Positions 45,552-61,750 of a DNA stretch of 61,750 nt are shown piece after piece. This stretch comes from Erysipelothrix sp. (lineage in GTDB: Bacteria > Bacillota_I > Bacilli_A > Erysipelotrichales > Erysipelotrichaceae), in assembly GCA_018335655.1 (NCBI GenBank), contig JAGXRX010000055.1, positions 1-61,750 on the forward strand, in the 5' to 3' direction. The stretch's first letter is position 1; the number at the start of each line of letters is the position of its first letter. The notes beneath the pieces are model-generated. The model was given only the letters and a program-made list of their open reading frames with translations. It was not told the DNA's origin and made no database searches. The position numbers and the translations under genes were made by a program.

Positions 45552-46004
45552 ATGAGTGCCTCATTTAAAGTTGTGAAAGATGGTTATGATAAGTTAGCCG
45601 TTGATCATACCATTTCAACATTACAATCAAGTGTTGAACAACTCAACAAAAAATTAGAAGTGTATGAAAAAGAAGTGCACATTACTCAAGAAGCATATCA
45701 AAAGCTTAAAATGAAACATACCATGCTTGTGGCTGATTTATCTTCAAAAGAGAAAGCAGCTGATGAGATTGCACGCTTTGCGCTAAAAGAAGCGAATGTT
45801 GTGATTGAACAAGCCAATGAACATGCAAACATGATTGTGAATGAAGCACTTCATACTGCTAAAACACTGCTTAAAGAACTTGTACGCATTGCGAATGAAG
45901 GTAAAGAGAACAAAGCTCAGTTACTTTCTAAACTTGCGACTTTACAAACGATCATTGAAGGGTTAGAATTTCCTATGATTGAACCATTCAAGGATATTGA
46001 ATAA
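45552..46004 (+). CDS. divIVA: DivIVA-family cell-pole/septum protein
   Basis: A 150-residue protein, mostly coiled coil. The N-terminal domain keeps FKVVKDGYDKLAVDHTISTLQ, equivalent to the lipid-binding FxxxxxGYDxxxVD motif; coiled coil runs from about 30 to 135. DivIVA binds negatively curved membrane and recruits division or wall factors. Its place between sepF and ileS is the standard Bacillota arrangement, though ylmG and ylmH, often between them, are absent. No obvious SD precedes the ATG; coupling to sepF is likely. Confidence 0.9.
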   Translation: MSASFKVVKDGYDKLAVDHTISTLQSSVEQLNKKLEVYEKEVHITQEAYQKLKMKHTMLVADLSSKEKAADEIARFALKEANVVIEQANEHANMIVNEALHTAKTLLKELVRIANEGKENKAQLLSKLATLQTIIEGLEFPMIEPFKDIE

Positions 46005-46010
46005 ACAAAG

Positions 46011-46222
46011 CTTAAGACAACAATGTAAACGACCTCATCTTCAGAGACATGATGATTGCTGCGAATCATGGATGAGACTTACATGTATCACTTAAGGGTT
46101 AAACTTCTGAAATCATTAAGAAGTTTCGTACTAGTCGTTACCTAGTTGAGTGCATCTTGAAATTCAAGATGAACTAAGGTGGTACCACGTTAGCGCGTCC
46201 TTAGATTGGCGCGTTTTTTTAT
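46011..46222 (+). promoter_or_regulatory. T-box riboswitch (isoleucine) upstream of ileS
   Basis: T-box sequence AAGGTGGTACCACG at 46176-46189, then a GC-rich terminator (CGCG-T-CC with GGCGCG, 46194-46213) and seven T. The base helix pairs CTTAAG (46011-46016) with CTTAAG (46091-46096); the codon before its unpaired A is ATC (46087-46089), isoleucine. A stem III hairpin AACTTCT/AGAAGTT lies in between. Uncharged tRNA-Ile is predicted to switch ileS on. Confidence 0.9.
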
Positions 46223-59214: not shown

Positions 59215-59242
59215 TTGATTAATTACTGCTTTATGCTATAGT
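59215..59242 (+). promoter_or_regulatory. promoter of the repeat-hairpin RNA
   Basis: TTGATT (59215-59220), 16-bp spacer, extended -10 TGC-TATAGT (TATAGT at 59237-59242). Predicted start near 59249. Confidence 0.75.
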
Positions 59243-59256
59243 AAAAGTGCAAATGG

Positions 59257-59370
59257 CCTTAGCAATGTGGCCCCAGTATCATTGCAAGAGACAATTGACC
59301 TTAGCAATGTGGTCCCAGTATCATTGCATGAGACAAATGACCTTCACAATGTGGTCCCAGTATCATTGTA
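59257..59370 (+). repeat. three tandem 42-bp repeats
   Basis: Units begin at 59257, 59299 and 59341, an exact 42-bp period. Copies 1 and 2 differ at three to four positions; copy 3 matches for about 28 bases (CCTTCACAATGTGGTCCCAG and onward) and then runs into the terminator. There are no unique spacers, so this is not a CRISPR array. Confidence 0.93.
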
Positions 59371-59371
59371 G

Positions 59372-59399
59372 TGGAGACTTCGGTCTCCATCTTTTTTTT
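59372..59399 (+). terminator. UUCG-tetraloop terminator
   Basis: TGGAGAC-TTCG-GTCTCCA stem-loop followed by TC and seven to eight T. It ends the repeat RNA. Confidence 0.9.
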
Positions 59400-59423
59400 A
59401 TCTAAAACGGGGGAGTATCGTTT

Positions 59424-59531
59424 ATGATTAAGAATTGTATGTATTTTGCAATACCTGTAGTTAACTATGATTATAGAGATTCACAAGATCAAAGCAGAAT
59501 TCGTGGTTATAGTGAATTAACCATCAATTAA
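59424..59531 (+). CDS. 35-residue ORF downstream of the repeat RNA
   Basis: An ORF begins MIKNCMYFAIPVVNYDYRDS and ends ELTIN. GGGGGAG lies nine bases upstream of the ATG, a strong ribosome binding site. It follows the UUCG terminator by 24 bases and is closed by the terminator at 59571, so it would be expressed only on read-through. No family is recognised. It could be a peptide gene controlled by the hairpin leader, or a chance ORF. Confidence 0.45.
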   Translation: MIKNCMYFAIPVVNYDYRDSQDQSRIRGYSELTIN

Positions 59532-59625: not shown

Positions 59626-60495
59626 TTAAGGTCTTTGAGGTCTATTATTCTTTCTTTCTTTAATGCGCTCTTTAATTGCTTCAAGGCGTTCTTTTAAAGG
59701 TTTTTCACTTTCAAGTTCTTCAAGTTCATCTTCAAGTTCGTCAGTGTCTTCACCTTCTTCGCGAAGTTCTTTTAATTGCTTGCGAATAGCCTTTAAAGCA
59801 AACTTTTCATCTCTAGTAAGTTTATCTAGTTTTTCAGCACGCTTAGTAGCCATGAATTCTTTCATTGGCATATAAGTTCCATCTTCTTGTAAGACAGCAC
59901 CACCAATAACATATAGGCCTAAAGGAATTTCTTTTCCTCTTGCTTCGAAGAGTTCACGAAGGGTTGCTTTAATAAACACAACATCCACTTCAAGTCCTTC
60001 TTCTAAACTTTCAAGACGAGCTTTAATACGAGCTCCTAGGTTATCAACAGCTTCTTTAACTTCTTCATCTTCTTCGTCTTCATCTCCAACGACTGTAATT
60101 GCAACTACGTCGCTTTCAAGTGCATCTTCAGTGATGAATCCATTTTCTAAGGCATAAGCAATGATTGCAGTAATCGCAACATCAACTGGTCCATCAAGAT
60201 AAGGACCCTTGTCGAAGCCAAGAGCATCATCATTAAGAGGAACAATATCGACCACTAAATCATCTTGATCTACGGTGATATCAAATGCTGGATTAATTTC
60301 AACACGTACAGTTGCTTGATATGCAAGTGTTGGAGTAGTTCGTAGTGTTGGTAACAGAGCGAACATGAGTAAGAAGGTTAAAGCGAGGGCACCCGCTAGT
60401 TTGAATCCAAAACCTAACGGTTGTTTCATAACACTTTTTAATACTTTTTGATCATTAAGTGCATGTGTATCTATTGTCTTCTGAAGTTTGTTCAT
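59626..60495 (-). CDS. RsgI-like membrane anti-sigma factor
   Basis: A 289-residue single-span protein: about 27 cytoplasmic residues, one helix (about 28-50), then an extracellular domain starting ATVRVEINPAFDITVDQDDLVVDIVPLN, which matches the conserved middle region of RsgI-type anti-sigma factors (VxxDINPS...V...LN). A long acidic and then basic, charged helical tail follows (DEDEEDEEV; ending KERKNNRPQRP). Unlike RsgI, the N-terminal sigma-binding domain is very short, with no zinc-finger motif. The sigma gene lies 56 bases upstream on the same strand, so a sigma/anti-sigma pair is inferred. Confidence 0.75.
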   Translation of the reverse strand: MNKLQKTIDTHALNDQKVLKSVMKQPLGFGFKLAGALALTFLLMFALLPTLRTTPTLAYQATVRVEINPAFDITVDQDDLVVDIVPLNDDALGFDKGPYLDGPVDVAITAIIAYALENGFITEDALESDVVAITVVGDEDEEDEEVKEAVDNLGARIKARLESLEEGLEVDVVFIKATLRELFEARGKEIPLGLYVIGGAVLQEDGTYMPMKEFMATKRAEKLDKLTRDEKFALKAIRKQLKELREEGEDTDELEDELEELESEKPLKERLEAIKERIKERKNNRPQRP

Positions 60496-60551
60496 AAAAT
60501 TTCTCCTTCATCAAGTAAGAGATCATTCAAAGTGATTTGGTCAAAAAAATC

Positions 60552-61043
60552 TTAAAGAAATTTTTCTTTAAGACTTTCAACAGCTTGATGAACGCGATAT
60601 TTTAGAGTAGAAGCATTCACTTTGAGTGCTTTTTCCATTTGAGAGTAGGTCATATCATACTTGTATTTCATGACAAGAGCACGTTGTGTTAATGAATCGA
60701 ATTTCTTAATTTCCTGCCACAAGATATCTTCAGTGACATGATTGAGAGTTGATTCATTAAGATCTTCATGTTGATCAACAACTTCATCATCATCAAAGAG
60801 TTCAACTTCTTCAAAGGTTATCTTATAAAACTTAGAAAGTTCACTACGTGCAATCGCATACGTATAATCAAGTAGGTTTTCTATGTCATGGCCTTTCTTC
60901 ATTGCCTTAAAAAGTGACATCATAATGTTCTGCATAATGTCCTGCGCATCACTCACTTTTTTCACTTTAGAAAAGACATAAATACCTATAGGTTTCTTTA
61001 AAACATGATAATGTGCTTCAAAATCATCAATGTGGTATTTCAT
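60552..61043 (-). CDS. sigma-70 family (ECF-like) RNA polymerase sigma factor
   Basis: A 163-residue sigma factor with region 2 (YVFSKVKKVSDAQDIMQNIMMSLFKAM near 27-53) and region 4 (LTQRALVMKYKYDMTYSQMEKALKVNASTLKYRV near 120-155). I take the ATG at 61043; a longer frame from 61241 would include unrelated sequence and the promoter. A minus-strand TATAAT (61055-61050) lies only six bases before this ATG, so the message may be leaderless. It is coupled with the downstream RsgI-like gene; together they likely sense envelope or polysaccharide signals (inference). Confidence 0.82.
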   Translation of the reverse strand: MKYHIDDFEAHYHVLKKPIGIYVFSKVKKVSDAQDIMQNIMMSLFKAMKKGHDIENLLDYTYAIARSELSKFYKITFEEVELFDDDEVVDQHEDLNESTLNHVTEDILWQEIKKFDSLTQRALVMKYKYDMTYSQMEKALKVNASTLKYRVHQAVESLKEKFL

Positions 61044-61130
61044 ACCATTATTATAATGCTTATATGGTTGATTTATAGTATAAATAGTGTAAATAAGTGT
61101 GAAACAAGTCGGTAAAGTCTCACGATGAGT

Positions 61131-61152
61131 TATAATTAGGTTAACTTGGTTA
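61131..61152 (+). promoter_or_regulatory. TATAAT and twin GTTAAC palindromes before the hydrolase gene
   Basis: TATAAT at 61131-61136 is a likely -10. It is followed at once by GTTAAC-TTG-GTTAAC (about 61138-61152), two copies of the hexamer palindrome over the predicted transcription start, which could be an operator. Confidence 0.45.
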
Positions 61153-61172
61153 ACAAGTCCTGGAGGAATATA

Positions 61173-61750
61173 ATGAAACATGATTTGACATATGACTCTT
61201 ACTTGGATAAAACCAGAATTCATTACAGTGTTTTTGATCATCCTACCCCAAAAGCATTAGTATTAATGATTCATGGTTTAGCAGAACATCGTGCTCGATA
61301 TGATGCCCTTGCGACCCGCATTGCATCATTTGGATATATCGTATTAACCATTGACCAACGTGGTCATGGTGAAACTGGAGCAGATATGATTTTTGGTGAT
61401 TTTGGTGAAACTGATGGTTGGATGCGCAATATTGGTGACATTATTAGTATTCAACATTTTATTCAACACAAATATAAGACACCAACCGTTATCTTATTTG
61501 GACATTCCATGGGTAGTGTAGTTGCACGCTCACTCTTAAAACATCATGGAGCTGAATACAGCGGGTGTGTCTTATCAGGTGTTCCTACTTTACCCCCAGC
61601 ATTAAGCTTTCTTCATCCAACCATGAAGATCATATGCAATATCATGGGACAAACAAAACCTTCACATCTCTTTTATGCATTAACCTTTAAATCCTTTGAT
61701 CGTAAACATCGCTCACTCACTAAGAACGCTTGGTTGAGTGTTGACGAAGC
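61173..61750 (+). CDS. alpha/beta hydrolase, monoacylglycerol lipase-like (3' truncated)
   Basis: The frame is open to the right edge (192 codons seen). MIHGLAEHRARYD carries the oxyanion HG motif, IDQRGHGET is typical of Hydrolase_4/monoglyceride lipases, and GHSMGS holds the nucleophile serine near residue 113. The acid and histidine of the triad are beyond the window. It probably hydrolyses lipid esters in the cytoplasm. TGGAGGAA precedes the ATG. It is divergent from the sigma factor gene. Confidence 0.9.
   Translation, partial: MKHDLTYDSYLDKTRIHYSVFDHPTPKALVLMIHGLAEHRARYDALATRIASFGYIVLTIDQRGHGETGADMIFGDFGETDGWMRNIGDIISIQHFIQHKYKTPTVILFGHSMGSVVARSLLKHHGAEYSGCVLSGVPTLPPALSFLHPTMKIICNIMGQTKPSHLFYALTFKSFDRKHRSLTKNAWLSVDE

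What the first reader, a model, noticed from the sequence alone, without database searches (positions are those of the whole stretch)
59215..59400. Possible new structured RNA: three exact-period hairpin repeats between a promoter and a UUCG terminator
Seen directly: TTGATT-16-TGCTATAGT promoter, three units of exactly 42 bases (59257, 59299, 59341), each with a six-pair stem and a 12-base loop TGGYCCCAGTAT, then a TTCG-capped terminator and poly-T. The closing pair changes from G-C (copies 1, 2) to A-T (copy 3), a compensatory change that supports RNA selection. The loop is the most conserved part, suggesting a binding site presented three times, as in titrating RNAs such as CsrB, although the motif is not the GGA of CsrA targets. 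This functional idea is inference.
Basis: partly seen in the sequence, partly recalled or inferred. Interest (0 to 1): 0.85.

Follow-up and report, generated by a model that had tools for sequence, protein, structure and literature searches.

The report
Orphan RNA antitoxin with broken toxin
Three tandem RNA pseudoknots in this bacterial genome are the antitoxin half of a CptIN-type toxin-antitoxin system whose toxin gene has shrunk to a 35-codon remnant, and tracing their relatives shows that the unexplained Rfam family "Fusobacteriales-1" is this antitoxin.

Summary
The array is a divergent match to the uncharacterised Rfam family RF02920 Fusobacteriales-1 (E 1.7e-4, below its gathering score). 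I traced RF02920 into phage and bacterial contigs. In seven distinct phage loci the same three-unit array and terminator is followed at once by a toxin related to CptN, the endoribonuclease of type III toxin-antitoxin systems (NCBIfam CptIN E 1e-13 to 1e-17; solved CptN 4rmo E 6.5e-9). Across 28 units both stems pair in every unit, and all three first-stem pairs change on both sides. In the window, the ORF after the terminator is only 35 codons and aligns to residues about 43-70 of that toxin (0/1000 shuffles score as high). The genome has no other detectable CptN, and a congener has the empty site. So this is a horizontally acquired CptIN module: antitoxin intact, toxin broken. It could act only in trans against an incoming CptN, or it is a young fossil. 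New here: a function for RF02920, its missed pseudoknot, solitary CptI units in toxin-less phages, and in-place swapping of type III modules.

The parts
59215..59242 (+). candidate promoter TTGATT-16-TATAGT with extended -10 TG; expected start about 59249
   Evidence: sequence; scan 9/12, not above chance on its own
59255..59285 (+). antitoxin unit 1, H-type pseudoknot: S1 GGCC 59255-59258 with GGCC 59269-59272; S2 GCAATG 59262-59267 with CATTGC 59280-59285; loop L1 TTA
   Evidence: model R1 29.8 bits
59297..59327 (+). antitoxin unit 2, pseudoknot: S1 GACC 59297-59300 with GGTC 59311-59314; S2 GCAATG 59304-59309 with CATTGC 59322-59327
   Evidence: R1 30.4 bits
59339..59369 (+). antitoxin unit 3, pseudoknot: S1 GACC 59339-59342 with GGTC 59353-59356; S2 ACAATG 59346-59351 with CATTGT 59364-59369
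   Evidence: R1 32.0 bits
59286..59296 (+). linker 1 with GAGACAA (GATACAA in most relatives); predicted single-stranded toxin-contact and cleavage region
   Evidence: conserved in relatives; cleavage inferred from CptI of E. rectale (PMC4627078)
59328..59338 (+). linker 2 with GAGACAA
   Evidence: as linker 1
59251..59369 (+). whole array: divergent RF02920 Fusobacteriales-1 RNA, here reassigned as a CptI-type antitoxin
   Evidence: 42.9 bits, E 1.7e-4 (gathering 52.1); E 1.3e-4 in the whole genome
59371..59399 (+). intrinsic terminator (GTGGAGAC TTCG GTCTCCAT plus T8) between antitoxin and toxin position
   Evidence: same position in all CptN-bearing relatives
59409..59415 (+). ribosome-binding site GGGGGAG
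   Evidence: sequence
59424..59531 (+). 35-codon remnant of a CptN-type toxin gene (MIKNCMYFAIPVVNYDYRDSQDQSRIRGYSELTIN)
   Evidence: BLASTP 8e-7 to L041 toxin and 8e-6 to L034 toxin; best tblastn place in the whole window for L041, L068 and L087 toxins; 0/1000 shuffles reach its score
59126..59625 (.). extent of the insertion between tagD (ends 59125) and the rsgI-like gene (ends 59626); the gap is only about 40 bp in congener G128

Best explanation
The element is the antitoxin array of a type III toxin-antitoxin module of a divergent CptIN branch, inserted between tagD and rsgI, whose toxin gene has been reduced to 35 codons. Shown: three 42-nt units, each an H-type pseudoknot with both stems supported by compensatory change; a terminator; then a CptN-like remnant. 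Shown in relatives: the same RNA and terminator immediately followed by a full CptN-like gene. Inferred from the solved CptIN system: in intact relatives the toxin cuts the precursor in the GAUACAA linkers into monomers of about 42 nt, and each pseudoknot joins the toxin in a closed ring and blocks its active site; the terminator keeps antitoxin in excess over toxin. In this genome the toxin cannot work, so the array can act only in trans, by neutralising a CptN that arrives on a plasmid or phage (anti-addiction; my estimate about 0.4), or it is a recently orphaned fossil (about 0.45).
For: RF02920 match. RF02920 arrays above gathering in L034, L041, L065, L068, L078/L088, L084 and L087, all followed by terminator and a homologous 161-176 aa ORF. 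That ORF hits NCBIfam NF047359 CptIN at 2.9e-17, 1.6e-13, 2.2e-13 and PDB CptN 4rmo at 6.5e-9; 4rmo is also the only good fold match, probability 1.00. Pseudoknot: 100% of cells paired over 28 units, all three S1 pairs and three of six S2 pairs change on both sides, slid controls 16-64%; 24/24 units in eight arrays keep S1, 0/20000 partner permutations reach this. Toxin remnant at the expected place, strand and order. Own genome has no other detectable CptN. Empty site in a congener.
Against: The window array is below the RF02920 gathering score (42.9 against 52.1). The relatives' toxins are below the NCBIfam CptIN cut-off (50-63 against 90 bits), so this is a divergent branch. The remnant is short, about 24-27 aligned residues. 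No transcript data. For solitary units my extraction required S1, so only the array units are an unbiased test. The genome is 90% complete, so a toxin elsewhere cannot be excluded.
Confidence: 0.9

Rival explanations
1. Retained orphan antitoxin: the array is kept by selection because it protects against CptN toxins on incoming mobile elements (anti-addiction). This is a sub-reading of the best explanation.
For: All three pseudoknots, the promoter and the terminator are intact while about 80% of the toxin is gone. An independent toxin-less three-unit array lies in Bacillales UBA2753 (L023), whose held genome has no detectable CptN. Phages carry solitary units without toxin.
Against: Recent toxin loss would look the same; no close relative shares the orphan array, so selection cannot be measured. 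CptI antitoxins are toxin-specific (PMC4627078).
Confidence: 0.4
2. Non-functional fossil: the toxin was lost recently and the array is drifting.
For: The toxin is already broken; congeners lack the array; copy 3 has drifted in its linker (33/42 identity).
Against: No broken pair in any of the three pseudoknots.
Confidence: 0.45
3. Working type III pair in trans: a CptN is encoded in the unassembled part of the genome or on a plasmid.
For: Completeness is only 90% (assembly, table).
Against: No CptN in 1.65 Mb; type III toxins normally sit just downstream, where the remnant is.
Confidence: 0.07
4. Cis-regulatory leader (riboswitch or attenuator) of the 35-codon ORF, as Rfam's 'Cis-reg' label for RF02920 suggests.
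For: Tandem pseudoknots followed by a terminator and an ORF with a good ribosome-binding site.
Against: In relatives above the RF02920 gathering score the downstream gene is a type III toxin relative, with the classic operon layout.
Confidence: 0.04
5. Protein-titrating small RNA of the CsrB kind.
For: Repeated identical motif, free-standing transcription unit.
Against: The 'loop' is half of a pseudoknot stem; no GGA motif; partner gene in relatives is CptN-like.
Confidence: 0.01

Closest known systems
RF02920 Fusobacteriales-1 RNA (Rfam 15, labelled Cis-reg)
   Same: Three CAAUG hairpins with GAUACAA linkers, same spacing; L023 bridges the window to the family at 53.0 bits.
   Different: Window scores 42.9, below gathering 52.1. 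The Rfam model has no pseudoknot stem; its label is cis-regulatory, while here it is an antitoxin.
CptI antitoxin of the CptIN type III system, Eubacterium rectale (PDB 4RMO; PMC4627078)
   Same: Tandem repeats, H-type pseudoknot with the same order of strands, terminator, CptN-family toxin next.
   Different: Here 3 x 42 nt instead of 2 x 45 nt, a 3-nt first loop (UUA/UUC) instead of one base, unrelated primary sequence, toxin branch below the NCBIfam cut-off, and in the window the toxin is broken.
pseudo-ToxI of phage phiTE (PMC3475682)
   Same: Antitoxin repeats without their toxin, able in principle to act in trans; resembles the solitary phage units found here.
   Different: ToxI type, in a phage with experimental proof; the window locus is chromosomal and untested.
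6A RNA RF02925 / TenpIN
   Same: Also a tandem-repeat RNA of Rfam next to a type III toxin (L017).
   Different: Different repeat (about 50 nt) and TenpN toxin (NF047358 E 3.6e-38).

Membership tests
RF02920 Fusobacteriales-1 | score at or above the gathering cut-off (52.1 bits) | tested here: not met
   42.9 bits, E 1.7e-4; homologue L023 53.0 bits
RF02920 Fusobacteriales-1 | three tandem CAAUG/CAUUG hairpins with conserved ACAA linkers, full model length | tested here: met
   aligned over model 1-113
Type III toxin-antitoxin (CptIN-like) | tandem short RNA repeats that form pseudoknots | tested here: met
Type III toxin-antitoxin (CptIN-like) | intrinsic terminator between repeats and toxin gene | tested here: met
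   relatives
Type III toxin-antitoxin (CptIN-like) | full-length endoribonuclease toxin gene directly downstream | tested here: not met
   only a 35-codon remnant in the window; met in relatives L034, L041, L065, L068, L078, L084, L087
CptIN family (NCBIfam NF047359) | toxin above the curated cut-off (90 bits) | tested here: not met
   relatives' toxins 62.9, 50.7, 50.3 bits; homology itself clear (E 1e-13 to 1e-17; 4rmo 6.5e-9)
Type III toxin-antitoxin (CptIN-like) | RNA is processed by and neutralises the toxin | not testable with these tools
   needs a co-expression and cleavage assay
CsrB-like titrating RNA | repeated GGA in hairpin loops | tested here: not met
   loop TGGYCCCAGTAT; GGYC is pseudoknot-paired

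The most novel reading that the evidence does not exclude
Toxin-less CptI pseudoknots are a functional class: chromosomal orphan arrays (window, L023) act as anti-addiction RNAs, and solitary units in large phages act as RNA counter-defence that blocks CptN-type abortive infection. When type III modules replace one another at a locus, old antitoxin units are kept upstream as protection, as seen in Clostridioides phage ES-S-0107-01 (CptI units before ToxIN) and the Lachnospiraceae locus L017 (CptI unit before TenpIN).
Probability: 0.35. Interest if true: 0.75.

Novelty: new variant of a known kind. Interest (0 to 1): 0.52.

Why it matters
It gives a testable function, and the missing second stem, to an Rfam family that carries only a cis-regulatory label, and it adds a three-repeat branch with its own toxin clade to CptIN. 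It also points to RNA antitoxins that live without their toxin, in chromosomes and in phages, which can be tested as anti-addiction and counter-defence devices. For the window itself it replaces "possible new RNA" with a concrete evolutionary event: gain of a mobile module, then loss of the toxin.

Tried and rejected
RF02920 hits at E 0.06-1 in the family (L005-L013) were inspected: no tandem repeat, and the sequences look protein-coding, so rejected as chance. Most of the 11 genome contigs pattern hits are single matches, probably in coding sequence; only L023 and L017 were kept. Weak R1 hits in G419, G041 and G402 are not tandem and were rejected. TenpIN was considered because of L017, but its TenpI repeats are the separate 6A motif. 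Canonical CptIN loci in the same family (L043-L050) carry a different repeat of about 45 nt and do not match RF02920. AlphaFold of the toxin gave low confidence (pLDDT 55.7), so its fold match is supporting evidence only. Search of plasmids for the array found nothing. The paper describing RF02920 is, to my knowledge, Weinberg et al. 2017; it is not held, so I could not check whether it mentions toxins.

Full report
OBSERVATION. With up to three mismatches allowed, the unit occurs nowhere else in the 1.65-Mb genome. The promoter hexamers are plausible but not above chance by themselves, and nested folding energy is not exceptional.

The bases just before each stem, GGCC, GACC and GACC, are complementary to GGCC, GGTC and GGTC in the 'loop' TGGYCCCAGTAT. 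Together with GCAATG/CATTGC this is an H-type pseudoknot: S1 (4 pairs), UUA/UUC, S2 (6 pairs), one U, S1', seven nt, S2'. The variable Y of the loop is variable because its upstream partner is.

FAMILY. cmscan with an E-value threshold gave RF02920 Fusobacteriales-1 at 42.9 bits, E 1.7e-4, over the whole model. This is below the gathering score of 52.1, so the window is a divergent relative, not a call by Rfam's own rule. A pattern scan of genome contigs found a three-unit array in Bacillales UBA2753 (L023) that scores 53.0 and shares the window's S1 types. Scans of viral contigs found many more.

PARTNER. In every viral contig found with an RF02920 array above gathering (L034, L041, L068, L078, L084, L087, L088), and in Clostridioides phage pCD1602_4 (L065), three units are followed by a terminator and then by a homologous ORF of 161-176 aa. 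L078 and L088 are the same sequence, so these are seven distinct loci, two of them (L034 and L065) near-identical. One further phage, L120, has only two units and is treated below. The ORF is related to CptN: NCBIfam CptIN E 2.9e-17, 1.6e-13 and 2.2e-13 and PDB 4rmo, CptN of E. rectale, E 6.5e-9 (5.8e-8 with a profile). These scores are below NCBI's 90-bit cut-off, so it is a divergent CptN branch. A low-confidence AlphaFold model (pLDDT 55.7) has 4rmo as its only good Foldseek match, probability 1.00. Repeats, terminator and toxin in this order are the defining layout of type III toxin-antitoxin systems (PMC5086642), and CptI of E. rectale is an H-type pseudoknot with the same strand order (PMC4627078). 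I conclude that RF02920 is a CptI-type antitoxin.

PSEUDOKNOT TEST. On 28 distinct units (alignment A2) all 252 pair cells are standard pairs; the three S1 pairs and three of the six S2 pairs change on both sides; 47 cells change on both sides (shuffled mean 10.8); slid structures give 16-64% paired. Nine different S1 strands occur in the arrays alone. My extraction demanded S1 of at least three pairs, which biases solitary units, but in eight arrays all 24 expected units were recovered with S1 intact. Swapped partners fully pair in 36% of combinations, and 0 of 20,000 permutations reach 24.

THE WINDOW'S TOXIN. After the terminator comes GGGGGAG and a 35-codon ORF (59424-59531). It matches residues 43-66 of the L041 toxin with 46% identity (BLASTP 8e-7) and L034 (8e-6). 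It is the best tblastn place in the whole window for the L041, L068 and L087 toxins, and its score of 62 is not reached by any of 1,000 dinucleotide shuffles of the stretch (maximum 59). Its first residues, MIKNCMYFA, also resemble the toxin N-terminus MIERGLYYA, so one plausible history is an in-frame deletion between the two similar LYYA and LYWA segments, followed by loss of the C-terminal part; this is inference. No other CptN was detected in the genome.

ORIGIN. The gap between tagD and the rsgI-like gene is 501 bp here but about 40 bp in congener G128. Congener G036 (99% complete) has no array after tagD, and the RF02920 search, which covered all five congeners, finds no convincing match in them. 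The module is therefore an insertion, in line with the mobility of type III systems. CptN genes elsewhere in the same family belong to the canonical type with another repeat of about 45 nt.

MECHANISM. Inferred from the CptIN structure: toxin cleaves the precursor in the single-stranded linkers, monomers lock the toxin in a closed RNA-protein ring, and the terminator keeps antitoxin in excess. In this genome the toxin is broken, so the array is either a trans-acting orphan (anti-addiction) or a young fossil; intact stems favour the first, the isolated occurrence favours the second. L023 is a second toxin-less array: no CptN in the 1.3 Mb held for that genome.

WIDER LEADS. Solitary units with intact pseudoknots occur in viral records of up to 137 kb that hold no detectable CptN, beside a terminase (L097), a portal gene (L089) and a minor head gene (L074). 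They resemble pseudo-ToxI of phage phiTE, which defeats ToxIN by mimicry (PMC3475682). Records may be fragments. Clostridioides phage ES-S-0107-01 (L120) keeps two CptI units at the locus where pCD1602_4 has CptIN, but continues with a 36-nt x 3 repeat, terminator and ToxN (PF13958 E 2.2e-35), whose last residues are those of the replaced CptN. L017 has one CptI unit directly before 6A RNA repeats and a TenpN. Type III modules thus appear to replace one another in place and leave older antitoxin units upstream.

VERDICT. Observation confirmed; interpretation partly right. The window feature is a divergent, orphaned CptI antitoxin array. What is new is the function and the second stem of RF02920, and the evidence for toxin-less units. 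I found no paper in the held library that names RF02920, but the original description could not be read, so priority is not established.

Noticed in passing
L066, L067, L071, L077, L079, L081, L085, L074, L089, L097, L025, L032: Solitary CptI-type pseudoknot units in phage contigs whose held records contain no detectable CptN: candidate RNA antitoxin mimics.
   Followed up: partly
L120:1464-2330 (CP067347.1) versus L065: In two sister Clostridioides phages one locus holds CptIN or, in place of unit 3 and CptN, a ToxIN that keeps two CptI units upstream and the old toxin's last residues.
   Followed up: partly
L017:2567-3168: One CptI unit directly upstream of two 6A RNA (RF02925) repeats and a TenpN gene; suggests that Rfam's 6A RNA is a TenpI antitoxin.
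   Followed up: partly
L025 and L032, just downstream of the solitary unit: Both phages share a second hairpin element (GGATGAC..GTAGAATATCATCC type) with a compensated stem; unknown function.
   Followed up: no
L062 (G260:C40) and L048, L058: Fragments matching CptN, two of them with stops inside, in other genomes of the same order; toxin loss may be common.
   Followed up: no
L064 (Fusobacterium polymorphum plasmid NZ_CP084160.1): A CptN-family gene (annotated hypothetical, NF047359 E 7.5e-32) with its own three repeats, followed by a ToxN/AbiQ gene: two type III systems near each other.
   Followed up: no
L034:949-1151 and 1192-2544: HEARO RNA (RF02033) followed by an ORF with an HNH-like motif near the CptIN locus.
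   Followed up: no
window 45999-46205: T-box leader RF00230, 115 bits.
   Followed up: no
window 59626-61241, minus strand: RsgI-like anti-sigma gene and an ECF-type sigma factor gene that converge on the insertion.
   Followed up: no
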